Part shown: positions 25,901 through 48,600 of the stretch, one piece after another
How positions within the stretch are numbered: the stretch's first letter is position 1
Layout: every line of letters begins with the position of its first letter
NCBI GenBank assembly: GCA_026874595.1
Contig: CM049309.1
Location: 47,104,079 to 47,168,078, forward strand
Length of the DNA stretch: 64,000 nucleotides
Source: Sipunculus nudus
Lineage: Eukaryota; Annelida; Sipuncula; Golfingiida; Sipunculidae
Reading direction: 5' to 3'
Made by a program: the position numbers and the translations under genes
Notes under the pieces: generated by a model
The model's input: only the letters and a program-made list of their open reading frames with translations
Database searches by the model: none
Told to the model about the DNA's origin: nothing

Positions 25901-28900
25901 TACAAAAATGTGGTTGTCTGCAGCTATGTCCAACTTGTCCAAATAAAACAACTTTTAATTCAAAGTTATTAATGACACAAACTTTAATTGATATGCCTGT
26001 TTAATATGCCTGTACCAATACCAGGCTGCAAATAAACTTTGCAGGGTTTCTTTTATATAAGAAGTGCATGGGTGCGCAACCAATAGTGAATCTGACATCA
26101 CTGTTGTGAATATGCTATCATTATTTACTGCCCTTGTAACAAAAGTAACCCCAATAAATGAATGATCACCATGTGTTGTTGCAAAATTAGGGTTAACCCT
26201 TTTGTTAAATGACCAGCAAAGGTTCATTTTTTTTAGTCCTGCCCGCCCTGGAATGTTGGTCCAGGTGACAGAAAAAATACAGAGTACACATGTACCCGAA
26301 TCAATTGGTGACCATGTCATTGGTTACACTCCTGAGGCAGCGGAAATCTTGCGCTTCTAGAGAAGCAACTGATTTTCACGCTGCCAGCTTTGACCTTTTA
26401 TGATATATTAAGACACCAGATGGCGGTTCGTTGTCCGCTGAAATAAACGTGCGTATGATGTGACAAGCAGCCAATCAGATGCCAATAAACAAACACTCGA
26501 CAGGCATCCTGGCTCCGCCTATTGCTGCGCTTCAAGCGCCACTTGATGAGTTTCCGGTAGAATTTAAATTACTCCCTCTGCATTCTTGCATCGTCGACCG
26601 ATTCGATTATTACATTATGACTGTGTTAGCGTAGCCATGTATCTGTTGTCTGCAGAACTGAAACAAGCCGGCGAGGTGTGCACGCAGCCTTTGTTGTTAC
26701 CTTTGTTTGAATTACAGCTCACCGGCCGAGCATCCTTTGTGCCCAAGGCCCTAAGCAAACCACGTCAGGGGCAATTCTCTCTGAGCCTGTGGCCTGTTGA
26801 GACGGTTACGCGGGGCTATGAGCTGTCACTCAAAAGGAAATAAACATGATTGGCTCTGTGTATTCCTCGCTTGGCTTTGTCTTCAAGCACAAGGTCTCAT
26901 CTGATTGGACAAAAATACAGTGCTCCCCTCTGGTGTAGCAATTCAGGATACGAGGTCATAACAAACAGCGCCTTACTATATAGATATAGTAGCCCTATAG
27001 GTAAAGCGCTGTGTAAAGAGCGTAGTCATTGGTTCATTTCAACTCATTTGCACAGCCCAAGATGGCACTTCTTATGAATATTGCCGACTAGGTACCATGC
27101 ATACAAGCGGGCCATTAATGAAGCATTACAGAAAATCCAAATTTCCTGGGCTTATGGTAGTTTAAAACGATCTTGATCAAATCAGTTCTTAGAAGAGTTA
27201 GGCCTACAGCTGTCCATAAAGGATCTGTTTATTTCTCTAGTGAGATATTTTTAATATTCATGTGTTTTCTTTAAATTCTAAACCCAGGTAAAACCCTGCC
27301 AAAAAAAAAGCCATTGTGCAGAACTGACAGGCATGCACAAGAGTTGTGTTGCTTTGTTACATAAATCCTGGATAAATGTGGTTGAGCTCTTTAAACACTT
27401 CCTCCACACAGTTGGTTCTGTCTTTGTGATGGCAGCCTCATGCAACTGCAACTTTGGAACATTGATTGAGTGTGCACTGAAGTTTAGAAAGTCCGGGAGG
27501 AGATCAAGGTAGGATTAACTGATTTGATCTGGAAGAAATTTCGTTCCTCTGTAGGCTGGATGGTCCATGTTTGCCAGAAAGTGATTACTGGTCATTCCTG
27601 GGTAAATCTTTTGTTAACTTTGTCCTTGTGGGGTTCAAGCTCGGGTTCACAAAGCACGTCAAGCCATGCTTCACAGGCATCAACAATTGTAGCACTGTCA
27701 GAATGAAGTTTGTCCAGTGCAATTGAGACTGGCCTTAAATGTTGATAGAGATGAGAGTAATATAATATATTGTATGAATGATTTTTCAGATGACCAGTGC
27801 ATTGGCCAGTATTAGGTGACTTAGGCATAGGAATTACGCACCCCTGGCCATGCTGGGTTCCATTTAAACTATAAGCCTGTAACTAATGTTTCATTTCCTT
27901 GTGTATAATTTAGTATTTATATAATTCGGTAGTTGTAGGATGTTACCATATTATTGCTCCTTAAAATAATTTTGTGTTCCAGTTGTAGAAGGTTGGGTGC
28001 ACCTTACCATGAAGAAGTATTCTGCACAATTTAATAGTCACAGTGTAAACTGGTTCAAATGGTTTTGTTCACATATTCAATGGAGAAATAGCCCAAAAAT
28101 TTTGTCAGGACTATTTTAGGTTTAAGATATAAGAGATGTATATGAAAGGCGCAGAGTGAAAAATGATTATCAGTTTTCTGTCTAAAATATCAGTACTGAA
28201 CCTGCATAACATGATTAAAAAGTGCAACCTTACCTGCATATATCAGTTTCTGTTGCCCAGCAGGATAATCTTGCCCCTTCTCTGCTTCTACCTTTTGCTT
28301 CAGAACTTTCACCTGGAAGAAAGCATATTTGCACTTGCCTTATCATGGGTCCAAAAAATGCAGACTTTGGATAATTGGTTTAAGTTGTCACATTATAAAA
28401 CAGTTTGAACGTTCTATTATCATAAATAATTTGGGAGGGTTGTTTTAATCAAAGTTAAACTGCCAACTGCAAGTTCCTACATAGTTCATGACTTGGTACA
28501 AAAAATCACTGATAAAGAATTCCACAAGAAAACTTGTATTAATCCTTTACTGTAACTTTAATACATTACATTGTAACAAAACACCCCTTTGAAGGGACCT
28601 ATTCTGATAGCTGATGTCCAATAAATAACTTTTATAAAAATAAGCTACAAAATGTCGATCAAATCACACACAGGCTGTTCATTTTATTTATATTTACGTT
28701 TATACCATGGGGGTGGGGAGGCCCTGTCAAAATAACACAAACACATCAAACAAGGTGATCTAATGGCGAATCAGACAAACTAGAGTTTGCATTTTGAAAG
28801 AAGTGACCTTTCAGCCTCAGCACATACTGTGGTTGCCTTTTTATTTGTGAGGGTTTTAATTTTGCAATATTTGTGAATGTGAAATATTCGCAAAGGTGAA

Positions 28901-31900
28901 ATAATTGCGAATATGAAACCCTCAGGAATGAGATGCCCCATCAACTAAGATGACCTCTGAAAACAATCTCATCAACATTCAACAACCTAAGTTGTGCCTG
29001 CTTTTGAAACTTTCCCATCCATTAGCCTGTACACACAGCCTGTGATACATACTGACTGTGATACAAGTCCTTATTTAATAACTGAACCAGAAATTAGTTA
29101 GGTATTGTAGGATTTTTTTTTTCTAAACTTTAAAATCAATACAGATCCTGCTATAATTAAATTTTAGATGTTCTGGTACAATCGCAAAAATGAAACCCAC
29201 GCGAAACGTGCGAATTGAAGAAATTGCAAAATTTCAGCCACACAAAAATTAGGCCAACCCCAGTATATGCAACCAGTTATCTCCAGTTAGGTGTTTTTCT
29301 CTGTTTGTCAACATTGGTGCATATACCTCATTTACTAACACTAAACATCCTATGGATAAACAAGCTCCTACATCTGTACCCAGACATGGGGTAATAGTAA
29401 TAAGTAATAGTAATAGACTATTACAGCTTTTTCCATGTAATAGTAACAGTAATAGTAATAGACTCAAAAATGTGTGCTGTAATAGTAATAGAAATAGAAG
29501 GCAAAGTAACAGAGTAATACATATTACTTTCTATTACTTCCTGTGAGCCCCTTGATCATGAAGCATATAAGCAAATAATGCTGAACAGACTCAGTTCTTG
29601 TCCAGTAATTGCCCAGGATGTGCCTATTGTTGAGGCAAGCATGGGCCAGCTGCCACATTACTGGTGACACTACATAAGAGTACTGGACAGAGTAGGTCAC
29701 AGCCAAATAAGTTACCTGGCACAATCTGACCTTTGATTAGTAAACCATGGATAAACAGAGGCATGTTTGATGTTTAGAGACAGATAAATAGTGTATTATT
29801 ATTGTGACATGTACATCTTATCTCACATCCATCAATCAGTATGCATATTCTGAAATGTACCTAGATTTGTTTTCACAAGCCAGTTTGCATTTTATTCATA
29901 CAGATTACAATAACACACAATCAAGAAGAATAAAATATGGAACCAGATACAGTGCACACCCAAATGTTCATGATAACCTTGTGGTGTTTTCACTACCCAT
30001 AACCTATTGAAGCCTTAAATGCTATAAACTCATACCAGTACTACAATCACTTGGATAAAGTCATACTGCAGGCACATGTATTATCTAGTTAATTTATATA
30101 CATATTCTTTTAAAACTATTCTTTTAATACTTGTCTGTCATTTCATAGTACCAATTTTGAAGACCTTCATTCAGTATCTAAAATTATATTAATTTATATT
30201 TTGAAAATTAAATGAACCATTTTCTTCACAATATAAATTTATTTGATTATATAATATAAGAATATAAGTAACTGTTAATATTTTATTATTTAATATCTGA
30301 AATTTTGATATCAAATAATTAGATCCTGTTATGTACAAGTTATTTAAAGTACAAGACTGATTAAAACCAAATTTACTGTGAAAGTGATTTAAATAATATT
30401 TTATTTGTTTTGTAAAATTGATGTAAGTTCAAATCACTGTCCAAATTTCTAAATTATCCTATGCTGAATTTGCTGCAGTGAAGAAGGGCATGCCTGAAGA
30501 ATAAAAGCCATGCATGCTACCATTATTGTAAAGTTTACCACCTCTCTGTTCACTCTCAAGATGTTCTATATGTGATGGAATAAAACATGGCATCATATAC
30601 AGATGAACATATACACCTGAGAAGATGGTGTACTTTTGTCTCCAGTTTGGTTCTGTCCAGAATCTTGACGTAAACAGTATTTTTATTGGATATATTTATA
30701 AGGATTGGGAAACACAACACAGCCCTACATAAATTCCTCTCCTGATACATACATAAAGGACTGAATTGTCAGCTTTGATACTAAATAATAATATGCAAAT
30801 CATGAATAATTCCTATGAAGACAATTTTTAGTTCGGTGAAAATCTTAATTTATTAACTATGAGTAAAAAGATTAAATCTAAACGGAAGGATGTACTATTA
30901 AATAATTAGGCAAAAAAAAATTAAAGGTATGGTTCTCAGGCACCGCCTGCATCAATTTTAAACCCCCGCATCAAAAATTTTTATTTTAATTTTCAATAAA
31001 AACTTTCCAATTTTGAGCTGCTGCCTCTCGGACATTTCTTTCAAGAAGATAAAACCATACAATTTTCTTTTTTTTGTAGTGCTTTTACTTATTTAGTCAA
31101 ATAAAACTGTTATTTTCATGCTTTTCCCTTATCATTTGACATTTTTATCGAAACATACCAAAAAAAATTAAAATAAAAAAAGCGCCCGCCCGCATTGATT
31201 TCTGAAAAAAAGTGCCTGAGAACCATACTTTTTTTTTATTTTGGCCTTATATGTGAAATATATATGAAAATAATATTAAATGTACAAGTATGCATATAAT
31301 TATAAATCAATATTTTACATATGCCAGGGCCTTTACAATGGGTTGCTTTTAAATTACATGTATTCAAGAGTTCATACAATTATCTTTTCTTTTCGACTTG
31401 AAATGCCCCAATAACGATCAATGAGGTTTCAAAATATAAAAAAAAAAATGAATAAAAGAAGCTGAAATAATTAAGATCTCCAGTATCATTAGGCTTCTTG
31501 TAAATCACAGACACAGTATAAGAAAATTGTCTAAGTAACTGGATGATAAAGGTGCTTGTAATATTATTTAAACATGTGATGGTAGTGCTAGTTTAGGCCT
31601 GTAGCACTCATGCCTGCGCAAGTTCTGGAATCCTCCCATCAGTTTAAGTAATAGTAATAGTAATAGGAGATAAAATGTGGTAATAGTAATAGTAATAGTT
31701 ATATCAGAAATTGAAAGTAATAGTAATAGTAATAGAACAACTGTAATAGACCCCATGTCTGTCTGTACCAGAGCACAAAGTGTTATAAGAACTTTTCTGA
31801 ACAGGAATTACCTACAGTTTATTAATATGCAAGCAGAAAAAAACCCAGAAATTGCATAAATAAAAGGCAGGTGAATGACTGGCCTTAATTTTGTTTTCTG

Positions 31901-34900
31901 ACTTCCTGAATTTCGACACTGATTACATGCAGAGACAAAGGGAACTGATCGAAAACAATATTTAAATATTTGAACCAAGCTGTTTTTGAATCAGCTATAA
32001 ATATTGACCATGACTAGTTTTTGTCAGTTCCTGTACAGAGGTGGCGCCACCAGTTTTTTTGTTTTTTAAGGAATATTTTTTCTATTTTTTTAAACTATAA
32101 AATGACAACAATCATGTCAGTTTCTCAGCTGTAATTACATCAAGTGCCCTAAAACTTGGGTGAGTTAATTGATCACAAGTGGATGCCATACAGTTATCAC
32201 CCTGTCTGTCTTGTTTGTTTGTCTGTCCATCCACACAAATTTGTTTCCAGAAAATAACTCCAGGTTGTATTGACACATGGATTTCAAACTTGACTCAAGT
32301 ATGGCCCACTACTAAAGCAAGAACCTATATAATTTTGGGGTCAGGAGGTCACAGCTATCACTTGTATAAACAGGTTATGGCTGCATTTTAAGCCAAGCTT
32401 TTCATCCCAAACTTTCCATTTTTGGCATTTAGCCGACTTGCCAGTATGGGGTCACATGGGCAAAGGTCAAGGTCACAGGGGCCATCTGTTCACAAATTAG
32501 TTTCCAGATGATAACTCCAGTTTAGTTTGACATTGGTTTTTAAAATTGCACTTATATATGACTCGCAACTAAAGTAAGAACCATGTCCATTTGGGGGTCC
32601 AACAGTCGAAGGTCAAGGTCACAGGACTCATTTCTTAAAAAGAATGCATATGCATTTGAAGCCAAACTTTTCATAGCAAACCTTCCATCTTCAAGATATT
32701 GCTAACCTGCCAATAGGGGAAGATTCTGTTCAATTTTGGGGTCATGAGGTTGAAGGTCTACGTCACAGTACCCACTTATTTAGAAAAGATTGTAGATGCA
32801 TTTTAAGCCCAACTTTTCATCCAAAACCTTCCATCTTGCACATATAGCTGAGCTGCCAATAGGGGAAGAATCTGATTGATTTGAGGGTAACAAGGTCAAA
32901 GGTCATGGTCACAGGGGCTCATCTGTCCACATTTTTGTTTCTGGATGATAACTCCAGTTTGGATTGACATATTAGTTTCAATTTTGACTTATATATGACC
33001 CAGCAATAATGTAAGAACCCTTTTAATTTTGGGGTCATAAGACCAAAGGTCAAGGTCACAGGACCCACTTCTTTGTTGAAAAGATTGTTGATGAAATTTT
33101 AGCCAAACGTTTCATCTCAATCCTTCTATCATCTACATGTGGTACACCTGCCAACAGGGGAAGTTTCCTTTTGATTTTTGGGTCACAAGGTAAAAGGTTA
33201 AGGTCACAGGGCCCATCATTCACAAATCAGTTTATGGATAATAACTCGTTTGGGAAGACAGGTTGCCTTCAAACTGATCACAGAACCAATATTTTGGAAA
33301 ACCTCATAAACATATATATTTATAGACAAATGCAGCTGAGCGTCGAGACCCATGGGTCTTTAGTTTTTAAAGATATGGGTCCTGTGACCTTGGATCTCAT
33401 GACCCGAAAGTCAGTATGGTTCTTTCTTTTAGTGGTTGGCCATATAAGTCAAGTTTGACATCCAAATGTCAAATCAAACTGGAGTTATCATCTGAAAACA
33501 AATGTTTGGATTGCTCCTGTGAACTTGTCACTTTGACCTCTGATGTTGTGGCCCAAAAATCAAAAAGGATCTTCCCCCAATGGTAGGTGAGCTATTTATG
33601 CAAGATGAAAGGTCTGGGATGAGAAGTTTGACTTAAAATACATCTACAAACCCTTTAAAGATGTGGGTCCTGTGGCCTTGACCTTTGACCCAAAACATCA
33701 ATATGGTTCTTTCTTTAGTATAGGGCCAATATTAGTCAAGTTTGAAATCCAGATGTCAATCCAAAACAGGAGTTATCATCCAGAAACGAATTTGCAGATG
33801 GATGGACAGACAGGGTGATTACTATAGGGCACCCACTTAATCAAGCGGGGTCCTAATAAAGCAAACCATCATTGGCTACTGACAGGATTAGTCAAAACCC
33901 ATGTTTAAAGCACAAAAACAAAGTCCAGTGTTTTTTCTGGGTAAACCCTGTTGAATCAATGAATGGGTTTTTACGGACAATATAGTGTCCATTTTAAAAT
34001 TAAATATGTTTATATGCAGTAGCAAATATGATTCTGTGCTTCTATATATTATGTTAATATAGCAATAACAAGAGTTTGTCTGATATATATATAAAATTTA
34101 ACACACATATAAAGCAATTATTATGACAGCTTAAACCCCGAAAAAAAGGGAAATCACAAGTTTTAAGGCACAGTGGAGACCTACAAGACTCATAGCTAAG
34201 CCCATCATTTCACTTTAATTCTGGGTTTTATTTCAATGAGATTGAATTACTTATGGGTGTATACTCAAAAGGATGTAAACTTGCCAGTAAAATCTGTTAA
34301 AAACTGGCTACTGGCTAATCATTTTATTTTGGCATTTTTCAGTATGAATAGTTGCCAACTGAAGCACCATGATTAAAGACATAAGTAAAATAGATTAATG
34401 TAACAATGAGCTCAAATTCCAATAAACAATCTGAAATAGTGAGGAATTCTGTATAAATGGGACAAAGCCTGGTTGTCATGACTGATTTGTTCACGGTATT
34501 TATTACAACAAGACTTAATTAACAGAATTAAAAATTGAATAGGACTATTCCGAATTGGGAAATGAAGCTGACTGGGTCTGGCAAATTGAGCTGGAATGAT
34601 GAATAGAAGGATACAGCTTGCGTGATGGCAGATCTTCAGTTCTGATGTTATAGTATGATAAATATAGATGATATGGAGTAATAAATACAGAAGGAACTGA
34701 ATTATAGCTATTTTAATATTGTCATTTTGAAAGCATCCAAAACATTGCCAATATTTATGATAAAATTTCATCTATCAGCATACTTACAGATAAAATTTTT
34801 TTTTTTATCAAAAGATTTATTTAGACAATTAATTTTGACCTCAATAGAAATTCATATTTTATTTTTCAAAGCACACTGAGCTTAATTAAAACCAATGTCA

Positions 34901-37900
34901 CATTAACATCATTTAGCTGGAATTCAATTAGATTTAAGTCTAAATTAACCTTAACAAGGGCTAGAATCTAATGATTGAATGGACTTTTAAATACAATGCC
35001 CTCACGAGTAGCCCATAAGAATGAACTCCTCAATTGCTTTTTTTTTCAGTGACTGACGCATTGTGGAGTCCATAGATTGCACCTACAGTAAACTGTGATT
35101 ATAACACTCCATACACAACTGTGAGATTTAACATATATCCATTGATTAATGTTCAGTACATCTATGTGTATTGTATATTTGACCACTAGAAAAAATTACT
35201 GTTCTCTTCTCATCCCTAATTTGCACCAAGGAAGTTAAAATATGAACATAATAGTACACAGGCCTAAAGCCTTATACAGGGCAATAAATAAAACTCGGAA
35301 GTCGGAAGCCTTCGGAAGTCGGAAGCCTTTATAATTTTTGATATAATGTTAAAAATAACGATCATACCAACACTTTTTTGTGTTAAAATGGAAGATATAG
35401 ACCCCCTTTGCAAAACCAGAAAGTCGCACAAACGTATATTCCCATATATGAAAATCAAAGCATTTATAATGCGTCGGAAGCCTCTCGGAAGTCATCCTGA
35501 GGTGACAGATGATGTTCAAAATGCATAAAACTCGGAAGTCAAGACCATATAGCACCAACCAAAAATGACACAGAAAAAGTCTTGCATAATTCCAAATTTT
35601 AATTCAGGTAATATTTATGTATTTGAATAAAATCATTATGTATATAACTAACAAAATAATATATGCATTAACCCAAATATTAATTTAGGTAATATTTATG
35701 TATTTGAATAAAATCATATGTATATAACTAACAACATAATATATAAATTCATATTAAAATATAAAACATGAATATAAAATACTATAATTATAAATAAAAA
35801 AAAAACCAGTATAATACAATACAGATTTGTTTTGGTATTCTCTTTTATTTTCATTGAACAAATACATACATGATGCAGAACATAATTACATAATACAAGT
35901 ATAATAAAATGTATACATAATGTGTTAAATAACACAGATGACGATATAATTATATATCATTCAACAGCGATATAATTTGATATTAAATTATATTATATGA
36001 TAAAATATCATATATTATAAAACTACAATATAATCAATATTCCTATATTAAGTAAGACAATAATATATAGGTCAATATAAATTAATATATGAAATGATTA
36101 AATTGTATATAATATGATTATTTATATATCCATTCATGTATGTGATAAATTATCTCCTCCACCTAGGGAGTTATTCTAACAAATAAAAAGGATCACAGAT
36201 GGCAGAAAAGATTTTAGATGGCGATTCCTCCTATTAATTGTAGTAACTGATAATTATCTAAAAATAGTTTATGTCGTTACCTTAAAGGCACACGTTCTTA
36301 TTGCCTGATCCCCAGTTAGCACAAACATTTTATGAAACTGTTCTTAAAATGTTTCCAAAACAGTATGTGGCTTTAAAGTGTAAAATTAAAAAATGATCTC
36401 TTGACTCATATAGTAATGTAATATCCTTCCTACATAAATTATTTTGATTAAGCTAAAATAAAAATATAAAGACACCTTTATAATTTATGTCAATATTTTT
36501 GCAACATCACATGCCTTTTTTTAAATCTTTCACAGTTATGCAGTTTTACATATTTTTAAATTTTCGAAATATTTTGGAAGTGTTTTTATAATGGTTTATG
36601 CAAATTGTCTGTGCAATGTTCTAAAAATGTTTCCTGATACGTTGGGTGATCAGTATTCAACAAGCATTGGAGAGTTATATGCGTTCCATATAAAGCAACC
36701 TAATGCATGGATTAAAATTAGTTTCATTTATACTGTATATAGCACCCTAATGGATAAAAAAGAATAGTTTTATTAATACAAAACTTAATGGACTTTTCTT
36801 ACGGTTTTACCAGTTCCTGCAAGGATGCGACAGTTTGATACTTTGTTTTTTTTACATTAATATACAAATTTATGTATTTTATCAAATATTTGAATAGTAT
36901 GATGTAAAAATATTATAATACAAATTGATGTAGAATACTTAACTTTTTTTTATATGATAAAATATTCTAATCTATTTTGTTATATAAGGAAAAAAAATTA
37001 TCACACCATTTTGATAAAATTACGAAATTTTAAATGCTTTTATATTATATTTATTAGAAATAACATTCCATATTAAAATATTACGTCACGATATGATACA
37101 TAATGTATTACATTTGAATGTATATTTCAACATTTATTTTTTTTATATTTTACATATCATTATGTTTAATTAGTATTATACATTATGGTTTTATTCAAAT
37201 ACATAAATATAACTTAAATTAAAATTTGGAATTATGCAAGACTTTTTCTGTGTCATTTTTGGTTGGTGCTATATGGTCTTGACTTCCGAGTTTTATGCAT
37301 TTTGAACATCATCTGTCACCTCAGGATGACTTCCGAGAGGCTGCCGACGCATTATAAATGCTTTGATTTTCATATATGGGAATATACGTTTGTGCGACTT
37401 TCTGGTTTTGCAAAGGGGGTCTATATCTTCCATTTTAACACGAAAAAGTGTTGGTATGATCGTTATTTTTAACATTATATCAAAAATTATAACGGCTTCC
37501 GACTTCCGAAGGCTTCCGACTTCCGAGTTTTATTTATTGCCCTTATACAGGACTGCCACCAAATGCAAGATGTCTACTGGGGCTGTTAATGCTTCAATTC
37601 TCTCTGGACAAATACTATCAGTTGTTGATGTTACAGGTGCTTCATGCTTTCCAGAATTGTTATTTTTATTACAGGCCTTTCGACATACAACATTATGTGA
37701 ACTTGGTTTGCTAAAACCATAGGAAATATTTTTATTTAATTTTCTCTCTTAGAGTAACAGATCGTATCATGCTATAACCCCAGTTAGCCCTTTGATGGGC
37801 CGGCGACACACCAGAAACCTGAAGCGTCGACGTCAGCGGCTACCTCATGAGGTGCTTGTTGGGTGTCACAAGCTGTGAATGTAATGAATATATATTAAAA

Positions 37901-38422
37901 CTCAAAGACCGGAGTTTAGAAATTCTAAAATATAAAATAAAATTTCAAAATTTGTGATTATGCCCTTTCCCATCTGTAATTATTGCTTTTCATTGTGTGA
38001 TGTCATAAACCAGAGATCTTTAGGTTATTTTTATATTTACTGCTGAACCTTGAGAATAAAGACACTGGGCTTGATGCAAAGTGCAGACGGTCAGCTCTTG
38101 AAATAAGTGTTAAACAGAAAAAAAGTTCATTGCCACACGAATAACCGGTCAATAGCAATGCAATACAAGGGCACAATCGTGCTAATGGAACGAAAAGCAA
38201 GATTAAGAGTCAACCATGTAATGTTGAGTTTCCCCAGCCTGGTTAAAAGGAACTTGTTTCATGTCCACGGGAGACAGGCCGGTTCGTCAACTTCCATGAC
38301 AGCCGGTTTAAATTGGTTTTGACTAGCAATAAAAAGATTCAAAGATGACACTTCACCTGTTCACTTTCATCCACCTCAATCTTAAAGGTCTGCTGCTGAA
38401 GAGTCTTAAGTGTAATAAGCAT
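13860..38422 (-). CDS. RAD23: RAD23 homologue (UV excision repair protein), 5' five exons, 3' end outside window
   Basis: RAD23 binds XPC in nucleotide-excision repair and carries ubiquitinated proteins to the proteasome. Five minus-strand exons join in phase into about 280 residues: a ubiquitin-like domain (1-75), a Lys/Glu/Pro then Thr/Ala-rich linker (76 to about 163), UBA1 (about 164-203, with the MGF loop in [10 protein letters not shown] and the end RAVEYLFN), and a Pro/Ala/Gln-rich linker (204-280). The ATG at 38422 opens directly into the UBL strand [11 protein letters not shown], as in the family. RAD23 proteins are about 350-410 residues, so the XPC-binding domain and UBA2 (about 120 residues) are missing; I could not find them in 1-13859 and expect them beyond the left edge. 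Introns 1 and 2 are about 10 kb each and full of transposons. Whether it is the A or B type cannot be said; many invertebrates have one copy. Confidence 0.93.
14281..14760. repeat. repeat fragment in RAD23 intron 4
   Basis: It has the GACGGACGGACAGACAGACA minisatellite (14683-14702) and TTCGAGGAAGCGGGGGACAA, like the 'AAGCGGGGCCCTAA' ends at about 5945 and 7240. The segment 14575-14650 resembles 7590-7670. No gene. Confidence 0.6.
14784..15167 (-). CDS. RAD23: RAD23 exon 4 (linker and UBA1)
   Basis: The exon has 128 codons. The first part is a Lys/Glu/Pro-rich then Thr/Ala-rich low-complexity linker. The last 40 or so residues are UBA1, with [19 protein letters not shown] and ending RAVEYLFN just before a gtaagt donor. 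Phase is 0 on both sides. Confidence 0.95.
15399..17756 (-). mobile_element. Helitron-like element filling RAD23 intron 3
   Basis: On the minus strand the 5' end is TTTTTAGCTCAGCTGACTTT (from 17756) and the 3' end is CAGCTGAGCGTCATGACCC with GACCCATGGGTC, then CTTG before TT (15402-15399). The interior at 16640-17500 is a degenerate array of TGACCTTGACCTTTGACC blocks, and GCCGGCCGGCCGGACGGACG lies at about 17665. It sits wholly inside the intron. Confidence 0.75.
18110..18189 (-). CDS. RAD23: RAD23 exon 3 (end of UBL domain)
   Basis: It encodes [18 protein letters not shown] then NFVVIMVTK, the C-terminal strand of the UBL. The first glycine codon is split with exon 2. The acceptor is attttcag and the donor gtaagt; it leaves in phase 0. 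Confidence 0.96.
18190..19807. other. RAD23 intron 2, right-hand part
   Basis: 18240-18720 holds a loose tandem array with CATGAAAATCCAT and GTGACCTCTGACCT blocks. GTGACCCACGGCACATTGAC at 18753 looks like a decayed 3' end of the GACCCATGGGTC family. No gene seen at 18780-19807. Confidence 0.45.
19808..19931. repeat. direct repeat, left copy (CTTCGGACAAAC block)
   Basis: This block of about 124 bp, from ATGGTGGAATGTCTTCGGAC to ATATAGATC, recurs in the same orientation at about 24923-25047. Identity is about 80 percent by eye. Confidence 0.7.
21370..21401. repeat. (TA)n microsatellite
   Basis: About 32 bp of AT dinucleotide followed by a short TG run, inside the 3.3-kb element. Confidence 0.95.
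22928..22961. repeat. (TA)n microsatellite
   Basis: About 34 bp of AT dinucleotide inside the 3.3-kb element. Confidence 0.95.
24923..25047. repeat. direct repeat, right copy (CTTCGGACAAAC block)
   Basis: Matches 19808-19931. The two copies bracket the nested inverted repeats of 20300-24600 at a spacing of about 5.1 kb. Confidence 0.7.
25048..26315. other. RAD23 intron 2, gene-free AT-rich DNA
   Basis: Minus-strand frames of 93 codons (25163-25444) and 121 codons (25955-26320) are open but lack splice context or recognisable motifs. They may be decayed transposon protein or chance. Confidence 0.35.
26325..27024. mobile_element. 700-bp MITE copy 1 with 9-bp target duplication
   Basis: The element starts TACACTCCTGAGGCAG and ends AAAGAGCGTA, so its termini form a short inverted repeat (TACGCTC in copy 2). 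It is flanked by a perfect direct repeat GTCATTGGT at 26316-26324 and 27025-27033. It is about 90 percent or more identical by eye to 47770-48486. The interior is unusually CG-rich for this window and holds two CCAAT boxes (CCAATCAG at 26471). No transposase is encoded. A 9-bp duplication suggests mobilisation by a Mutator-like or related transposase. Confidence 0.92.
27285..27828 (-). pseudogene. hAT-family transposase relic (C-terminal part)
   Basis: Reading down the minus strand from 27828, the first frame gives [28 protein letters not shown] and KRFTQE, a pattern common in hAT transposases and their BED-type relatives. A frameshift near 27593 is followed by [20 protein letters not shown], the family's 'FLANxxHPxYRG' motif, then an in-frame TAA (27515-27517). 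Further on come [13 protein letters not shown] and LCMPVSSA, the C-terminal dimerisation domain, which then degenerates. The N-terminal part and terminal repeats are not seen. It lies in RAD23 intron 2 and cannot be active. Confidence 0.8.
28234..28312 (-). CDS. RAD23: RAD23 exon 2 (UBL helix and strand)
   Basis: It encodes [13 protein letters not shown] through QQKLIYAG, the central helix of the UBL and the KLIYAG strand typical of RAD23. The acceptor is tcttccag and the donor gtaagg; it enters in phase 0 and leaves in phase 1. Confidence 0.95.
28313..30925. other. RAD23 intron 1, proximal part
   Basis: Mostly unique AT-rich DNA with no gene seen. The notable item is the TAATAG trinucleotide-type array at 29393-29530. 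Confidence 0.45.
29393..29530. repeat. interrupted (TAATAG)n array 1
   Basis: Runs of AGTAATAGTAATAG broken by unique bases. CAGACATGGGG lies just to the left. The second array (31646-31750) is followed by CCCCATGTCTG, so the two loci have inverted flanks. Confidence 0.8.
30926..31229. mobile_element. 304-bp MITE with terminal inverted repeats
   Basis: The left end GGTATGGTTCTCAGGCAC is matched by GTGCCTGAGAACCATAC at the right end. The interior is AT-rich with GCCCGC/GCGGG-type patches near both ends. Flanks are A- and T-runs, so the target duplication is not readable. RAD23 intron 1. Confidence 0.8.
31646..31750. repeat. interrupted (TAATAG)n array 2
   Basis: Runs of GTAATAGTAATAGTAATAG separated by short AT-rich spacers. 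It creates a spurious minus-strand Leu/Ile/Thr-rich frame. Confidence 0.82.
32160..33363 (+). mobile_element. Helitron-like element with GGTCAAGGTCA array
   Basis: The 3' end is CAGCTGAGCGTCGAGACCC with GACCCATGGGTC, then TTTAG before TTTTT. Inside are about four units of roughly 250 bp with GGGGTCA..GGTCAAGGTCACAGG and GATAACTCCAGTTTGG. The 5' limit is uncertain (near the CACCCTGTCTGTC at about 32200). RAD23 intron 1. Confidence 0.65.
33364..33860 (-). mobile_element. fragment of the same family, opposite orientation
   Basis: TGACCTTTGACC blocks and a GGATGGACAGACAGGGTGAT stretch end in AAGCGGGGTCCTAAT, the complement of the family's 5' end. It abuts the plus-strand element tail to tail. 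Confidence 0.55.
33861..35270. other. RAD23 intron 1, AT-rich DNA without a gene
   Basis: Only short open frames; the 119-codon minus-strand frame at 34412-34771 has no recognisable motif or splice context. Confidence 0.4.
35280..35655. repeat. left inverted arm of the 2.26-kb element
   Basis: Contains repeated CTCGGAAGTCGGAAGCC-type blocks. Its minus-strand 69-codon open frame is matched exactly by the plus-strand frame of the right arm, which shows arm similarity rather than a gene. Confidence 0.88.
37165..37541. repeat. right inverted arm of the 2.26-kb element
   Basis: Reverse complement of 35280-35655 with a handful of substitutions, so the two arms have diverged little. Confidence 0.88.
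37551..38356. other. RAD23 intron 1, exon-1-proximal end
   Basis: Unique-looking DNA with no gene. A moderately GC-rich patch at 37795-37870 (GCGTCGACGTCAGCGGCTAC) stands out but is not explained. Confidence 0.4.
38357..38422 (-). CDS. RAD23: RAD23 exon 1 (start of UBL domain)
   Basis: It encodes 22 residues, [20 protein letters not shown] plus EQ, the first beta hairpin of the ubiquitin-like domain. The exon ends in CAG followed by a gtgaag donor in phase 0. The start is chosen because the ATG begins the UBL fold exactly. Confidence 0.93.
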
Positions 38423-40645
38423 CTTGGTTGTCGTGTGTGAGAGCAACAAGAAAATATTAGTTACGTTGCTCACAATGATGAGCCAAAAGGTAAGCCGCCA
38501 TGAACAGGATGTGACGTCAGGAGGAAGCCGTATTTGAGTTAGACTGATGTATGCTCATAATATGCAGACAATAAAGTCAACTAGACGGAGCAATCCTTTA
38601 TTTAGAGCAATGGTGTATTTCTAGAAACACGGCTATAATAAACATTCTACGGTAATATTGAATAACAATGGAGCCGTCAAGATTTGAAATATTATCAAAT
38701 TCATATCACACGTTGACAGGTTATTTACGGTAAATGAAAGAATATACGCGTTAAACGGTTCATTACGGTAATTGATTATTTTGTTTGCGCCAGTAGCAGA
38801 CGATAAAATCATTGCAGAGCCGCCAACCGTTTATACACAGAGTCAAACTCAGAAAACCATTGCCAGCGAAACGTTTTATTTACATGAGTATTTTGTTTTT
38901 GTTAATATTTAAATCGTGAGCAATTTCTCTAACAAATGCATGCAAATGTCAGTCTGTTTTAAAAGTTATTGTTATCCGAAGCACGTGTTCTTCCACGGGT
39001 TCCAAGTTAAACTCCGTCTACTGACACTTGACAATGCTTGTACTAACTGCATTTAATGCGGCGATATCCAGGAACCTGGATACCGCCGCATGAAATGCTT
39101 CAGAGTAAATTGGAGAACTTAAAACATCGTATAAAATCAAATATTGCGTTTGTGACAAGAAAACTTAAGTAATTAAAGGAAGATATAGTACGTTATTCGA
39201 ATGTCCAAGAAATTCAGCCAAATATTATGTTTTTAACAAGACTCGCTTTTAAAACAACCCTGGAGCTTGAAACTGTCTCAGAATCTGAAACAACGAACTT
39301 TTGTGACTTTGTGACCTTTGCTCGTTACCACTGGTAACACAGGCGGCTGCCGGCCATCAGTGACTGGGGGAAACCCAGAACAGACATCGTTTCCGCGTAT
39401 CACCGTTTATAAGGACAATATATACTTCTAATCATCATTTAAAGTGGACAAACACTGTCTGACTCTGAGTGGTATGTTATATGCGCGTTTGATAAGACTA
39501 TCTTAATTTCAAACCGAATACGATATTTTAAGACAAAATATAAGAATTTAATTGTCATTTGGACAGTCTCCAGTTTTCTCAAATCATCTTCTAAGGCTCT
39601 CGCACAGCGTAGCGTAGTAAGAGAGTACAGAAGCTGGGGCTATGCTGGCACCTGCAATGCATTTAAGATTTAGGATGGAACTTAACTGCCACTGTAAAAT
39701 TTCTAATCATTATGGGAAACGCTAGCTATACCTACCCCCGGTGGCGCAATTTATAATGTTTAATGCTTAGTATGTTTGTCTGCGTGCAATTTTACACAAG
39801 TAAGTTATTAACAATTTTGGTTTAAAACTTAAAATTTTGTTGAGTATAAGGATAATATCAGTTAATTATTGGCATTAAATTGTGGATAAAATCTTGATCA
39901 ATATATGTCTATCCATTCAGAGGCTTCTTTTCCATGGGGAGAAATGGATATTACTTTTGTTTTTGTCCAGGCCCAGAGCCATTGTTATATAGAGCTAACC
40001 AGTAAATTGACTTTTTGAACCATGACAAACATTCTCTGTTTTGCTTTGTAATTTTAGTTTGATAAAGATTCTGGTGGAGGTGTTTGTGGCCCCCTGCTAC
40101 TTTTTTTTCAATACCTTTTGGTTTTTACCAGATTAGAGGGAATAAAAAAATAATATGCATTTATTTTTCCTTCAATATTTAACATTTTCTTTAATTAATT
40201 GAAAGAAAATAAACCAATGACAGCACCAAATTGAACCTCTGAAATTATTTTCACACATACTGCCAGTTTTTTTTTGGAACAAGTTAAGGTGTTGCGGATA
40301 TTCATTGATCATGTGAATAGATGGTGCCTCCTGATAATATTAACCTAAAACCTAAAAACCTTAAAAAAAAGGTCCCCCGGTTAGGAAAAGATGGACCCCC
40401 TGGACCCCTCCTGGATCTTCTTCTGAAATGTACACAATTTCATTCTTGCAAGGGCAGCAAACCAGCACAAAGCTTTGGCATACCAAGTATCAAGACTTTA
40501 TAGTCTTTAGACTTGTGCTGGCCTTACTGTTACATGTATTCATTAATTTTATAAACTGGTTGATTAATTTATATATAATGAACAGGAGTCTATGTTACCC
40601 ACTACCATAATTTACTACTATTTTGGTTTGACACAGGAAAGGAAG
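38423..40645. promoter_or_regulatory. divergent intergenic region between RAD23 and SHOC1
   Basis: The two start codons face away from each other over 2.2 kb, so both promoters and 5' UTRs must lie here unless there are distant first exons. I see no confident TATA box or CpG island. The 38.5-39.7 kb part is free of the repeat families that fill the introns, unlike nearly all other non-coding DNA here, and contains a 50-bp palindrome (39049-39098). Nothing else recognised. Confidence 0.5.
39049..39098. repeat. 50-bp near-perfect palindrome
   Basis: Two 24-nt arms flank a 2-nt AA centre; the left arm begins GCATTTAATGCGGCG and 22 of 24 positions pair. It sits in the RAD23-SHOC1 intergenic interval. 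It could form a cruciform or RNA hairpin, or be a tiny foldback element. Confidence 0.85.
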
Positions 40646-40681: not shown

Positions 40682-42603
40682 GTGAGTGAATTTGAAACCG
40701 CTGCAGTGTACAGGGTTTTATGTTGATTGGTGATATACACTGAAAAATTATTGTAAATAATTGATTAACTTTTGCCTGAATATAATGTATAGGTAGATAT
40801 GGTCATTATACTAATGGGCATTAGTGTAATTATTAATTATATTTGTAAATTTTTAATCATTATTGACAGTGCTTCTGGAGACTGACAATAACATTTGTTA
40901 GAAGGTGTGAATTTTAAAATGATATTGGATTCTGTCTGGTTATTTAATTAAGGTCATTCAGGAGAGAGCAGCTCTTCTGACAGACATGCTTCTGCCTTAC
41001 ACAGCTGGGTTGCATCACAGCAGTGTCCAAGAACAGGCTTACAGGAAGCCATGGCTCAGAGGTACTGAGTGCAAAATATATCATGGATATTGATAGAAAC
41101 TTTTGTAAAATATGATGACAGAGCAAAAAAATGTTTCAGTTTGTTTTATGTTTTAAGTAATGACTGATCTGGAATGCCACTATTCACATATATCAGCAGT
41201 TATTCATCTCAATCTTTAGAAACAAAAACAAGAAATGCAAGTCAACTCAAATAAAACATACAGTTTTCACATATCCTAATTTACCTGGACATAGTGTCAG
41301 ATACTTTATTTATGAGAGTTGGTTAAAACCATCAACAGGACTCAGAATTAAAAAAAAAGGTTGTGGCACAAAAATCATGACACAAATCAATATTTCTATA
41401 TATAATTGTTTCTTGAAATACTTCCAAACTTTTTATTAACATTTAAAAACTTATTTCATACCATGATATACAGAGAAACCAAGTAAATATTTGAATGTAA
41501 TATTTGAACAATTATTGCTGTTGGTTGATTTGTAGCAATTCACAATCCATCCTGTATCTGGCCTCTGGAAGATGACTCGTTGCAGGAAGCAATGCAAACC
41601 CTTGTGTCAAATACAAAGAAATTAGAGCTGCTTAGTACCACAGAAATATACCTTCAGTAAGTTTAACATTGTTTCCAACTCCATGACATTAAAGGGACAT
41701 AATCAGGAGCAATATTATTCCTATTCTTTTACATTATTAGTTCAGTTTTACCTTATACAAAAGTTTCCCAGCAAAACGATCCAAGCACACAGTCTCATTT
41801 CCTCACATACAACTGTTTAACACCTTGTTATAGCCCTGTGTGTTGGTAAACACAGTCTGTTTACCATAACAAGGCTGCCTGACTGGGGTTCCGATTAAGA
41901 GGGGCAACACGTGGTGTTTCAGCCATCATTATAATTGTATTACATTTTTGGACAAAGTCAGTCAGGGCATCTCCTGATTGGCACGTGTTGTGGCTCCGCG
42001 CAGCACATGGCCAGATGCATTTTGTTTATGTTGACACCTGTGATCGTGCCAGATTCACAGTCTTTAACACTTGGTTTACAGGAGTAAGCAAACGGTTACA
42101 AAGCACTATTTTGGCAGGTACAGTTTTCTTTTAAAGGGAAGAAGCTATTTTTCGTGTTAATTAACTCAACATGCTTATTAGGTGATTGGGCCCCTTTAAA
42201 TTACAACTTCCTTCAGGTGTAGTAACACCAGTGAAAATTTTAACTTGTATTATATATATATATATTTTTGGGAGGGGGGGGATTGTTGTGTAATTTCTGT
42301 TGTCAGCAGTCAGTTAAGTGTGTTCAGCATATCAACAGAGAAGTGCAATTATCTGTCATCAGTCAAACTGTTTGATCAAAACTTTCTTTCAAGGGTAAAT
42401 AAGTGAAAACCATAGCATAGCACAGAATGACTGAACTCACATACCAAGTATTCACTAAATGCTCAGAGTATGCAGATTTTTAGCATCTAGCCTAAAATTT
42501 ACCTGAGATTTGATTTGTGGTAATATTTAGTTTTTCTTTTGGTTTGACCCAATCTAAATCCATAAAATAAATAATTCCATGAACAGCTTTCTGAGCCCCC
42601 CCC

Positions 42604-42672
<69 letters not shown>

Positions 42673-45600
42673 AGAATAGCCCCCACCCTCCTAATTTTTC
42701 AGTGTCAAGGATGTCATTAGAAAAGATGACTATTCTTGTCATGTGTATGTCTGTATGGTATGCCAGTCATTAATCATGCATAGGGCAGTTGTTTTCAATG
42801 AATAATTATGGAATATATTGTAATATTTATTTTAACTGCTTGTCTCCTCGCACTTACTATTCAGTGGAAGGGAAAAAATTCATTGCTGGTAAATATATAG
42901 TAACATTAATATAGATTCATTCACGAATGTGTCTTTTTTTCACAGTATTATGTCACAAGACACATTTTGTTTTTTGCAGCATGGAAATGGATGCTGTTAC
43001 ACACGTCATCTGTGATGTTGTACCCAGTTCTAATCCTGAATCTCAACAGTCCTCATTAGATGACTTCATCCTGGATACCTTGATGAAACAAGTTGAAGAA
43101 TCTCAACCCACTCACTCAAAGGAAAGGTTCTTGAAAGAAGATATTTCTCAGCATTGTGACAGTGGTAATGAGTTATCACAACAAATATATGAAAAGGGTG
43201 GTAAAGGTAAAGGTAGGGGTTTATAGTCTGATATCACCGACAATGCCAGTCTCATCCGACTTTACACTTTCCCTTCCTGGTCTTTCAGGCCTGTTCATTC
43301 TTGTAGCTTTTCTCAGCTCCCTGGGGAGCATACAAAACAAGCAGCCATATCAAGCGCTAGAAGGTTATTCTTTCTACATTTGCCTTCCTCCCATGACCAG
43401 TACCCAGTCACTCCTGGGTCAAGAGAGCGCTACTTGTGGTAAAAACGGTGGTCAGAACTTTGAGGTCACAAGTCAAGCGCCCATATCAACTATGCCACCA
43501 CACTTCCCCACTCCACATATTTTAATGAAAAACTTGCTTTAGAAATGCTTGAAATAAATCCTCAGTATTTGTTTTTAACATATTTATATAACTTTTCATA
43601 TCACTTGTAATCTGACTGTTAGAATTATTGTCTAAGAATGTCTCTGCAGCCTACTGAATTTATAAAACACTTGTGGAAATCACAAAGGTAATCTTGTTTA
43701 TAGCTTAATTGTTCATCTGTGTTCAGTTTGCATTGAAAGTGTAGATATTATCTTATTATTAAAAATAGGGGTATATTGAAATTGTGTACATTGTGTATTT
43801 TAGGTATAAACCAATTAGAGGATGTCCTTAGTGGTTCAGCCAGTGATGCAGACAAGGCCAAGCCAGACATATATAGTTTAGTATCCAGAGCAAGGGGAGT
43901 AAGGAAGCCGGACATATGGGATCAGTTCCTGAAGTGTGCACCTCTCAAAGAAAAAGATGTCTTTGGGTAAGAAAAATGTTCAGTTTAGCAGAGGCATTTG
44001 CAGACATTATAATGTACCTATACAGTTATAACTATACACAATTTAAACCATCTATGGTAACATAAACTTCTTCTTTAATTTCCACTATTCCAGCAGAGAT
44101 ATATTTTTACCAGTGGTATACTTGTTGAATTCTTTACAAATTTAGACAGGTTCTGCTAACAAGTATAACACTTTGTGATTATAATCGACTAATAGGTATG
44201 CAGTGTCTTACCTGAAAATGTGTTTAACATGAGCAGGCCCTATAATTAGTTTATTCTTTTTACATGACTCACTGAACTGGAGCTACAGATTGTTATTACA
44301 CACATTGATTAAAACCTTAGTATTATAGTTTCTCTGTTGTAGTTGCAAGTGTCACAATGTTACCTTCCCTTTTTCTTAATTTAACACTTTCAGGTCTGAT
44401 ATCCGGAGCAAGCATACTCTCAGTGACCAACACAATAATAAAATTGTCTCAGAAACAACAATCAGTGTTTTTCATGAAGAAAATGTCACTGTGAAAGAAT
44501 GTCTCACTCAGGTAATGCACATTTTATATCTACATAAGATCTCTTAATTAGATTAAATATGTCAAGCAAAGGATAGGAATCAAGACAAAGCTAGTTGAAC
44601 AGTGGCAACAAGATTTTGATAGATAAAAAATTGTAAACTCAGACTAGTATAATATGGGAGTGAAATCGTATACAGTTTTATGTACTTTTAAAGTTAGTCA
44701 CTAAGTCAGCTGATTGAATGGGATATAATGCACAGTGATGTAACACTGTGTTCAGTGAATATTGAATTAATAACCCCCATGTCAGAATGAGTCTCAATAA
44801 CTTAATATGATTTTGTGTACATTTAGGTCAATACACATGGACTACTTAACTCTGGGAGAACAAATTATCACTAATATAGAGATGATGCCTATTTGTGTCT
44901 CATAATATATTAACATCCTTGGCACCCTGATGATAATGACAACCTCAGGTACATAGGAAATCAAATTTCAGGAAGGCAAATATTAATAAACCAAAGTTTG
45001 TTTTCCTGTGGTGCACTGAACCCAGCATGAAAATTGTACAATAATTCATGATTGCATTGATCGGCTGATTGTTTTTGGGAAGCCAGCTTAACATTTAACA
45101 AATTTTAGTACCCTAATCCATGGCTTTTTTTTCACAGGACCAAGAGCTTGAAGATGTGTTGATCCTAAGTGAATTTAAGGAAACAAAATCAGCCTGTACA
45201 CCAGCGATATGTGAACTTAAGGCAAAACTTAAACCTATTGATTCCCACAACCAGGAAGATCAAATAACAGGTCAGCCATAGATAATTTAAATTGCATTGT
45301 TAGTTTTACTAAAAAAATGATTTTTCAATAAAGCCAAAGAATATACTATGTAAAAAAACATTTAAAAATTCTTATTTTCTTATGCAGATCTTGAAGATCT
45401 AACAGCCAAAATAAGTTATACAAACTTGTCATCATATGAACAGAGTAGTCGGCCCAGTTACAATTCAAAGGTATTTCCAGAAGAGAGTTCAACAGGTAGG
45501 TTCTTTGTTAAAGGAATGTAGAAGAAATATGTAGAATTTATTTACCTGTAATGAAATTCTCCAAAAAAAACCCTTATCAATTTAATAATGGTTCTTTCCT

Positions 45601-48600
45601 CTAATAGTAAATTGCATCTGATTTGGGGGACCATCCTGAAAGAATTATTTCTACAAAGCACTCTATACAAGCCTTTGGCACACACTGCTGCATACCACGT
45701 ACTGAGGGCTCCAACACAGCAAATATATGTGTAAATAATTTTTAGCTCAGCTGACTGAAAGTCATCTGAGCTATAACAATCACTCTTTGTCCGTGGTCTG
45801 TCTGTCTGTCTGTCCGTCCGTTAACCAGGCACAAATCGTAAAGACTGGACCTAGAATCTTAATTCTTGACACACTGAGAGGTCCATAAAAAATCTCCTTG
45901 GAAACCAGAAATTAGGTCTCTGTTACCCATATCCTTTGAGCTATGGGGCCCCAAAGTAACCCCCAGAATAGTAAAAAATTTCATACAAAAACTTCAATAT
46001 CTCAATAACTAAATCACTGATGGTCATGATTTTTGGCATACAAATTGATCAAGAGATGTTCCATCAGTTCCTGCAGACTGGTGGCGCAACCTGTATTGTT
46101 TAATTTTTTTACGATTTTTTCCTCTTTTTTTGAGACCTTTAAGGATGCTGTCATATGTTAACATGACACAAATTGTAATGACTGGACCTAGAATCTTCAT
46201 TCTCAACACACTGAGAGACCTTTGAAAAGTCTCCATGGAAACCAGAAATTAGGTCTCTTTTACCCATATCCTTCGAGCTATGGGGCCCCAAAGTACCCCC
46301 CAGAAAAGTCAAAAATTTCATACAAAAACTTCAATATCTCATTAACTACTTGACTAATGGTTGTGATTTTTATCATACATATTGATCATGAGATGTTCCA
46401 TCACTTCCTGCAGACTGGTGGTGCCACCTGTAATGTTCGATTTTTTACAAATTTTTTTCTCTATTTTTGAGACCTTTAAAAATGTGAACATCTGTTAACA
46501 AGGCACAAATCGTTAAGACTGGACCTAGAATCTTAATTCTTGACACACTGAGAGGTCCATGAAAAATCTCCTTGGAAACCAGAAATTAGGTCTCTGTTAC
46601 ATATATCCTTTGAGCTATGGGACCCCAAAGTACCCCCCAGAGTAGTCAAAAATTTCATACAAAAACTTTAATATCTCAATAACTACATCACTGATGGTCA
46701 TGATTTTTGGCATACATATTGATCAAGAGATTTTCCATCAGTTCCTGCAGACTGGTGGCGCCACCTGTTTTACGAATTTTTACGAATTGTTTTGTCTATT
46801 TTTGAGACCTTTAAAAATGTGAACATCTGTTAACAGGGCACAAATCATAAAGACTGGACCTAGTAGAATCTTCATATTTGACAGACTGAGAGGTCCATGA
46901 AAAGTCTCCATGGAAACCTGAAATAAGGTCTCTGTTACCCATATCCTTTGAGCTGTGGGGGGCTCCCAATAACCCCCCAGAATAATGGAAAATTTGATAT
47001 AAACAAACTGCAACATCGCAATAACTACAACACTGATGGTCATGATTTTTGGCATACATGTTGATCAAGAGGTGTTCCATCAGTTCCTGCAAACTGGTGG
47101 CACCACCTGTATTTTTCATGCAAATTTTCACAATTTTTTTTCTCTATTTTTGAGACCTTTAAGGATGTAGTTTTCTGTCAACAGGGTACAAATCGTAACA
47201 ACTGGACCTAGAATCTTCATTCTTGACTCACAGGGAGACCCATGATAAGTCTCCATGGAAACCTGAAATTAGGTCTCTGTTACCCATATCCTTTGAGCTA
47301 TGGCACTGCAAAGTACAGCTCAGAATAATGGAAAATTTGATACAGAAGCTGAAGTATCTGAACAGCTAATGCAGAGATCGCCATAATTGTTTGCATGGAT
47401 ATTGATCATGGAGTATTTCTGCAAACTGGTGGCACAACCTGTATTTGTTCTGGTTTTTTTACGAATTTTTTCTCTGTTTTTGAGACCTTTAAAGATATGA
47501 ACATCTGTTAACAGGGCCCAAATCATAAAAACTGGACCTAGAATCTTCATTCTTGACACACAGGGAGACCAATGAAAAGTCTCCATTGAAACCTGAAATT
47601 TGGTCTCTGTTACCCATATTCTTTAAGCTGTATGCCTCCAAAATACCCCCCCAGAATAATGGAAAATTTGATACAAAAACTGCAGTATCTCAATAACTAC
47701 AACACTGATGGTCATGATTTTCGGCATACATATTGATCATGAGCTGTTCCATCAGTTTCTGCAGACTGGTACGCTCCTGAGGCAGCGGAAATCTAGCGCT
47801 TCTAAAGAAGCAACTGATTTTCACGCTGCCAGCTTTGACCGTTTATGATATATTTAGACACCAGATGGCGGTTTGTTGTCCGCTGAAATAAACGTGCGTA
47901 TGATGTGAAAAGCAGCCAATAAGATGCCAATAAGCAAACACTCGACAGGCATCCTGGCTCCGCCCATTGCTGCGCTTCAAGCGCCACTTGATGTGTTTCC
48001 GGTCAAATTTAAATTGCTCCCTTTGCATTCTCGCATTATCGACCGATTCGATTATGACATTATGACTGTGTTAGCGTAGCCATGTATCTATTGTCTGCAG
48101 AACTGAAACAAGCCAACGAGGTGTGCATGCAGCCTTTGTTGTTACGTTTTGTTTGAATTACAGCTCACCGGCTGAGCATCCTATGTGCCCAAGGCCATAA
48201 GCAATTAAACCACTTCAGGGACAATTCTCTCTGAGCCTGTGGTCTGTTCAGAAGGTTACGCGAGGCGATGAGCTGTCACTCAAAACGAAATAAACATGAT
48301 TGGCTACGTGTATTCCTCGCTTGGCTTTGTCTTCCAGCACACGGTGTCCATGTCACAGTCTCATCTGATTGGACAAAAATACAGTGCTCCCCTCTGGTGT
48401 AGCAATTCAGGATACGAGGGCATAACAAACAGTGCCTTATGATATAGGTAGTAGCCCTATAGGTAAAGCGTTGTGTAAAGAGCGTAGCAGACTGGGTGCG
48501 CCACCTCTATTTTTTCTAAATTTTTACGAATTTTTTTTCTCTTTTTTTGAGACCTTTAAAGATGTGGTTATCTGTCAACAGTTTACAAATTGCAACAACT

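What the first reader, a model, noticed from the sequence alone, without database searches (positions are those of the whole stretch)
26316..48495. A 700-bp MITE family with two copies, each with an exact 9-bp target duplication
The copies at 26325-27024 and 47770-48486 are flanked by GTCATTGGT and GCAGACTGG respectively, and share TACGCTC/GAGCGTA termini. Two independent perfect duplications make the boundaries secure. The interior is CG-rich with CCAAT boxes, so it could bring promoter-like DNA into introns. A 9-bp duplication fits Mutator-like transposases; the family may be undescribed.
Basis: partly seen in the sequence, partly recalled or inferred. Interest (0 to 1): 0.72.

Follow-up and report, generated by a model that had tools for sequence, protein, structure and literature searches.

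The report
Two copies of a miniature transposon
Two related 700-base pieces of DNA without recognisable genes sit as clean insertions at two places in what is probably an animal genome, most likely moved by an enzyme made elsewhere; they look like a new member of an ordinary, well-known kind of mobile element.

Summary
Copies A (26325-27024) and B (47770-48486) are identical at 653 of 698 aligned columns. Each has an exact 9-bp flanking repeat, GTCATTGGT and GCAGACTGG. One detail is off: A's left end reads TACACTC.

Copy B splits a ~337-bp tandem satellite. Six sister units hold the empty site, so B's insertion is shown directly; A has no such control.

The ends are a long, decayed inverted repeat. 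In A the arms match at 54 of 103 positions without gaps. ACACCAGAKGG lies 89 nt from both ends of A, and 89 and 87 nt from those of B. I read it as a transposase-binding site (inferred).

No frame tested looks coding. A 9-bp duplication and long inverted repeats fit Mutator-like transposase best, Merlin being the rival; the TAC end is atypical of both and no transposase was found, so the superfamily is unproven.

The promoter claim is weak: CG count is high, but CCAAT density is ordinary and CpG columns vary most. A CTCF-like match in the arms is the boldest untested idea. No host genome is held.

The parts
26316..26324 (.). left target site duplication of copy A, GTCATTGGT
26325..27024 (+). 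copy A of the element, 700 bp, between RAD23 exon matches on the minus strand (intron 2 as found); the element's own orientation is arbitrary
26325..26427 (+). 5' arm of the decayed long inverted repeat of copy A (54 of 103 gapless matches to the 3' arm)
26413..26423 (+). subterminal motif ACACCAGATGG, 89 nt from the left end
26922..27024 (-). 3' arm of the decayed long inverted repeat of copy A
26926..26936 (-). subterminal motif ACACCAGAGGG, 89 nt from the right end
27025..27033 (.). right target site duplication of copy A, GTCATTGGT
47761..47769 (.). left target site duplication of copy B, GCAGACTGG, inside a satellite unit
47770..48486 (+). copy B of the element, 717 bp, inside the ~337-bp tandem satellite
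47858..47868 (+). subterminal motif ACACCAGATGG of copy B, 89 nt from the left end
48390..48400 (-). subterminal motif ACACCAGAGGG of copy B, 87 nt from the right end
48487..48495 (.). right target site duplication of copy B, GCAGACTGG
45820..48863 (+). tandem satellite (~337-bp unit) split by copy B; TRF reports 45820-47770, blastn extends it to 48863; six sister units show the empty site

Best explanation
A non-autonomous cut-and-paste DNA transposon of MITE size whose ends are a decayed long terminal inverted repeat. A transposase supplied in trans binds both subterminal arms, probably at ACACCAGAKGG about 89 nt from each end, cuts at TACGCTC/GAGCGTA, and inserts the element at a staggered cut that is filled in to give the 9-bp duplication. 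Shown: the empty site of copy B, the exact 9-bp repeats, the shared ends, the inverted symmetry of the arms. Inferred: transposase in trans, the binding site, and a Mutator-like (MULE) enzyme as the most likely source.
For: Exact, different 9-bp flanks on two homologous copies. Empty site in six sister satellite units. Arms of copy A match at 54 of 103 positions without gaps; 1 of 20,000 random inverted pairs from the window and 0 of 9,506 other registers reach that. Local alignment of the 200-nt arms scores 54 in A (0 of 300 shuffles reach it) and 45 in B (1 of 300). Motif at equal depth: 89/89 in A, 89/87 in B. No recognisable gene: nine stop-to-stop frames touching the copies gave no Pfam match above a curated cut-off; the longest frame within A (91 aa) has no PDB match, is broken in copy B, and its substitutions fall 8, 11, 3 on codon positions 1, 2, 3. 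MULE duplications are 8-11 bp and TIRs 14-500 bp or absent (PMC6446971, passages); MULEs are reported in all mollusc genomes analysed in PMC10294476 (passages), which bears on this only if the host is a mollusc.
Against: No autonomous relative and no transposase tied to these ends. Only 18 of the 213 stop-to-stop frames of 60 aa or more in the window, plus two pieces and short element frames, were scanned with Pfam. The TAC end differs from the G/C-conserved ends of most arthropod MULEs. For the 'MULE-Mollusca' group the review table gives no duplication length and no TIR to compare with. Gapless arm identity fails in copy B (36 of 103; 1,254 of 20,000 random pairs and 218 of 9,506 registers reach it); the arm alignment shows a 2-nt gap in its 3' arm. 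The symmetry depends on arm length: 130 nt, 3 of 300 shuffles in A and 0 of 300 in B; 350 nt, 2 of 300 in A and 15 of 300 in B. A 56-aa frame is open in both copies, without a Pfam match. Only two copies were seen.
Confidence: 0.85

Rival explanations
1. The same kind of element, but mobilised by a Merlin-type (IS1016-like) transposase, which also makes 8-9 bp duplications.
For: 8- or 9-bp duplications and TIRs of 24-462 bp, some highly imperfect, are reported for Merlin (PMC8101967, passages). PMC10294476 counts 63 Merlin elements in its ORF survey and three in its curated library (passages).
Against: Merlin ends have a conserved 5'-GG; this element begins TAC. The same survey's automatic libraries found Merlin almost only in cephalopods.
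Confidence: 0.12
2. Besides being a transposon, the element carries a captured promoter or 5' exon of a host gene and spreads promoter activity into introns (not exclusive of the best explanation).
For: 32 CG dinucleotides per copy, reached by 1 of 633 windows of 700 bp (windows overlapping the copies included); that window starts at 38701, near RAD23 exon 1. GC content is reached by 4 (A) and 10 (B) of 633. A 91-aa open frame in copy A.
Against: CCAAT/ATTGG count 4 is reached by 45 of 633 windows, CpG observed/expected by 66 (A) and 56 (B). CpG columns carry 10 transitions in 79 against 15 in 619 elsewhere (biased upward, as CpG columns were chosen from either copy). The 91-aa frame is broken in copy B and has no Pfam or PDB match.
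Confidence: 0.08
3. Two chance repeat-flanked segments, or a segmental duplication rather than transposition.
For: Pairs of 9-bp flank and 7-bp inverted end occur about 5 times per shuffled window, and 23 times in the real one.
Against: Homology stops at the same bases in both copies, and copy B has an empty site in six sister units.
Confidence: 0.01

Closest known systems
Mutator-like elements (MULEs), including Phantom and Rehavkus (PMC6446971, passages)
   Same: 9-bp duplication within the 8-11 bp range; long, variable TIRs
   Different: TAC terminus; only the outer 7 nt are a perfect repeat in copy B, 6 of 7 in copy A; no transposase seen
Tm1 Mutator/Foldback family of root-knot nematodes (PMC3169594, passages)
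   Same: MITE-like members, 8-10 bp and mostly 9-bp duplications, in an invertebrate
   Different: Tm1 TIRs are largely 13-15-bp tandem repeats with asymmetric 7-bp end motifs; the repeat finder showed no such arrays here and the ends are symmetric
Merlin (PMC8101967, passages)
   Same: 8-9 bp duplication, imperfect TIRs possible
   Different: conserved 5'-GG end lacking here

Membership tests
MITE (non-autonomous TIR DNA transposon) | terminal inverted repeats | tested here: met
   TACGCTC/GAGCGTA perfect in B, one mismatch in A; decayed ~100-nt arms
MITE (non-autonomous TIR DNA transposon) | target site duplication and empty site | tested here: met
   9 bp exact in both; empty site for B in six satellite units; none found for A
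MITE (non-autonomous TIR DNA transposon) | short, no transposase | tested here: met
   700 and 717 bp; frames scanned show no Pfam match above cut-off and the 91-aa frame no PDB match
MITE (non-autonomous TIR DNA transposon) | multicopy family in the host | tested here: inconclusive
   two copies in 64 kb; host genome not held
Mutator-like (MULE) | 8-11 bp duplication | tested here: met
   9 bp in 2 of 2 copies
Mutator-like (MULE) | long TIR (variable, may be absent) | tested here: met
   54 of 103 gapless in A; in B only when gaps are allowed
Mutator-like (MULE) | conserved G/C in the first three terminal bases (reported for most arthropod MULEs; not obligatory) | tested here: not met
   both copies begin TAC; rule from PMC13359780
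Mutator-like (MULE) | MULE transposase in an autonomous partner | not testable with these tools
   host genome not held
Merlin | conserved 5'-GG terminus | tested here: not met
   both copies begin TAC; rule from PMC8101967
hAT | 8-bp duplication (recalled) | tested here: not met
   the exact flanking repeat is 9 bp in both copies

The most novel reading that the evidence does not exclude
The subterminal ACACCAGAKGG motif is a working CTCF site, so each insertion brings an inward-facing pair of insulator sites about 510-530 bp apart into host introns, and the family spreads chromatin-boundary elements in an invertebrate. The motif would serve transposase and host factor alike.
Probability: 0.06. 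Interest if true: 0.6.

Novelty: new member of a known kind. Interest (0 to 1): 0.22.

Why it matters
It gives a cleanly delimited element, with a natural empty-site control in a satellite, that can be used to look for its transposase. The decayed long inverted repeat with a motif at equal depth gives a specific, testable binding-site prediction. The general biology is ordinary.

Tried and rejected
Host genome search: not held. Relatives elsewhere: exact 20-32-base patterns from the element gave 0 matches in genome contigs (2 scans) and 0 in viral contigs (4 scans); blastn of copy B against phage records gave no match. These are prokaryote and virus collections, so the blanks say little. Rfam at gathering thresholds gave 0 matches in the window.

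Folding as single-stranded DNA is only modestly better than 20 shuffles (z -1.39, 1 of 20 as good, for A; z -2.17, 0 of 20, for B), so no foldback structure is claimed. Other members by their ends: 3 TACRCTC and 3 GAGYGTA sites in the window; of pairs up to about 8 kb apart only the two known ones have 9-bp flanks within 3 mismatches.

Capture of a gene piece: rejected for the 91-aa frame. Eight further frames touching the copies gave 0 Pfam matches in 7 and one sub-threshold match (PF17586, E 0.044) in the eighth.

Transposase-like remnant beside copy A (about 27264-27882, minus): hAT-like by recall only. Its first frame gave 0 Pfam families and PDB matches no better than E 0.21; of two pieces searched apart one gave 0 and one a sub-threshold match (PF08348, E 0.026). 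Eight other window frames gave only sub-threshold matches or none.

Other 9-bp-duplication element at 35280-37541: no similarity to copy A beyond 10 shuffles (scores 40 and 43 against 36-44).

RAD23: the XPC-binding and second UBA segments gave no convincing match (best E 0.041 and 0.54), and a PDB search with the 25-aa exon-2 piece found nothing.

Literature: seven searches, each with a capped list, showed nothing that I could tie to this element; one search matched 46,532 papers, of which 8 were listed. Repbase and Dfam were not available, so 'undescribed' is untested.

Full report
Observation. Copy A is 26325-27024 (700 bp) with GTCATTGGT on both sides; copy B is 47770-48486 (717 bp) with GCAGACTGG on both sides. 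They align over 698 columns with 653 identities, 25 transitions, 20 transversions and 4 gap events, K2P 0.068. Copy A's left end is TACACTC, so only copy B has the perfect 7-bp terminal repeat. No third copy was found in the window; other blastn hits have E 0.13 or worse.

Is it more than chance? A scan for a 9-bp flank with a 7-bp inverted end (one mismatch allowed, 150-6000 bp apart) gives 23 pairs in the window against 5.3 on average in 60 shuffles, so the signature alone proves little. Copy B's context does. It splits a tandem satellite with a ~337-bp unit. When the flanks are joined and searched against the window, six sister units align across the junction and hold one target 9-mer and no insert: four read GCAGACTGG, two GCAAACTGG. 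One of the six, at 47419, has a 10-nt gap just left of the site; two shorter, more diverged matches (31997-32091, 55768-55807) also run across it. This is a natural empty site. Copy A has none in the window.

A caveat on the length. A T follows the 9-mer on both sides of copy A and in all six empty units, while G follows in copy B's right flank. A 10-bp duplication with one later change in B is therefore not strictly excluded, but it would leave the element ends asymmetric; 9 bp is simpler.

Anatomy. The first and last ~100 nt are inverted copies of each other that have drifted apart. In copy A, 54 of 103 positions match without gaps: 13 of the first 18, 30 of the next 70, 11 of the last 15. 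One of 20,000 random inverted pairs from the window and none of 9,506 other registers within the element reach 54. In copy B the gapless comparison fails (36 of 103; 1,254 of 20,000 and 218 of 9,506 reach it); the four-arm alignment shows a 2-nt gap in its 3' arm. Gapped local alignment of the 200-nt arms is high in both (A 0 of 300 shuffles, B 1 of 300). With 130-nt arms 3 of 300 (A) and 0 of 300 (B) shuffles do as well, with 350-nt arms 2 of 300 (A) and 15 of 300 (B). ACACCAGAKGG lies at nt 89 from both ends of A, and at 89 and 87 in B. A motif kept at equal depth in both arms while the stretch outside it has drifted is what a transposase-binding site would leave (inference).

Coding. The longest frame within copy A, 91 aa, is broken in copy B, has no Pfam or PDB match, and its substitutions fall 8, 11 and 3 on codon positions 1, 2 and 3, not the pattern of a constrained gene. 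A 56-aa frame is open in both copies (26464-26631, 47909-48076); it has no Pfam match, and of eight further frames scanned, these included, one had a sub-threshold match. Only 18 of 213 window frames of 60 aa or more were scanned (count of frames), so a transposase fragment elsewhere in the window could have been missed.

Surroundings. Copy A lies between exon matches of a RAD23 gene on the minus strand: tblastn with recalled human-like segments finds 38422-38351, 28312-28226, 18202-18101 and 14915-14790; the last has a UBA domain by Pfam. The two matches that flank copy A continue one another in the protein, so it sits in one intron, the second as found. The XPC-binding and second UBA segments were not found. 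Copy B lies among open frames of what may be a second gene on the plus strand; the only family hint is 57103-57441 against PF17825 at E 3e-4, below the curated cut-off, so an intron is likely but not shown. I take the host to be an animal, perhaps a mollusc from the look of the satellites; that is recall, not a test. No host genome is held.

Mechanism. Best reading: a non-autonomous cut-and-paste transposon, moved in trans. A 9-bp duplication and long imperfect inverted repeats fit Mutator-like elements: duplications of 8-11 bp, TIRs of 14-500 bp or none (PMC6446971, passages); MULEs are listed in all mollusc genomes analysed in PMC10294476 (passages). Against it, the TAC end departs from the G/C-conserved ends of most arthropod MULEs (PMC13359780, passages), and the MULE-Mollusca row of the PMC6446971 table gives no TIR or duplication length to compare with. 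Merlin has the right duplication but a 5'-GG end (PMC8101967, passages). Given that it is a TIR transposon I put about 0.7 on a MULE source; the overall 0.85 is for the non-autonomous TIR transposon as described.

The promoter claim. Each copy has 32 CG dinucleotides, reached by 1 of 633 windows of 700 bp, which start every 100 bp and include those that overlap the copies. GC content is reached by 4 (A) and 10 (B) of 633, but observed/expected CpG by 66 and 56, and the CCAAT/ATTGG count by 45. CpG columns carry 10 transitions and 6 transversions in 79, against 15 and 14 in 619 elsewhere (Fisher p 1.6e-4 and 0.018). Choosing CpG columns from either copy inflates both; the larger excess of transitions suggests ordinary CpG decay after insertion. 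This is against a protected CpG-island promoter and does not exclude some transcription.

The boldest reading left. With a recalled CTCF core consensus (CASYAGRKGGCRS) the only perfect matches in 64 kb, both strands, are the two 5' arms; the two 3' arms match with one mismatch in the opposite direction, and four other one-mismatch sites lie in satellites. Of 300 shuffles of copy A, 0 have a perfect and 11 a one-mismatch best match. The two copies are not independent, the consensus was chosen after looking, and a transposase-binding site explains the same symmetry. Enrichment of CTCF sites at domain borders is reported for one cephalopod (PMC10658181, passages), so the idea is not absurd; I give it 0.06.

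Novelty. A member, probably unnamed, of a known kind. Whether it is already in Repbase or Dfam was not testable here.

Noticed in passing
35280-37541: A second, different element with an exact 9-bp flanking repeat (CTTATACAG) and inverted repeats of about 377 bp (97% over the 379-nt arms reported, which include 2 nt of flank); ends GGCAATAAAT; between RAD23 exon matches 1 and 2. Its GG end fits a MULE or Merlin better than the finding does. No similarity to copy A above shuffles.
   Followed up: partly
27264-27882 (minus): Broken transposase-like remnant about 240 bp from copy A; looks hAT-like by recall, but no Pfam match above a cut-off.
   Followed up: partly
45820-48863, 49089-49769, 54430-55476, 58031-59136: Several tandem satellites with 279-342-bp units, sharing a GGTGGCGCCACC-like palindrome.
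   Followed up: no
5191-7236: Short repeats recur at a spacing of about 1.32 kb, which suggests a duplicated segment.
   Followed up: no
38351-39400: The 700-bp window with the most CG dinucleotides (33, starting at 38701) lies beside the first RAD23 exon match (38351-38422); possibly that gene's promoter region.
   Followed up: no
23690-24160: CG-rich patches with a 22-bp tandem repeat (TGGACACTTCGCCGAG) in AT-rich DNA.
   Followed up: no
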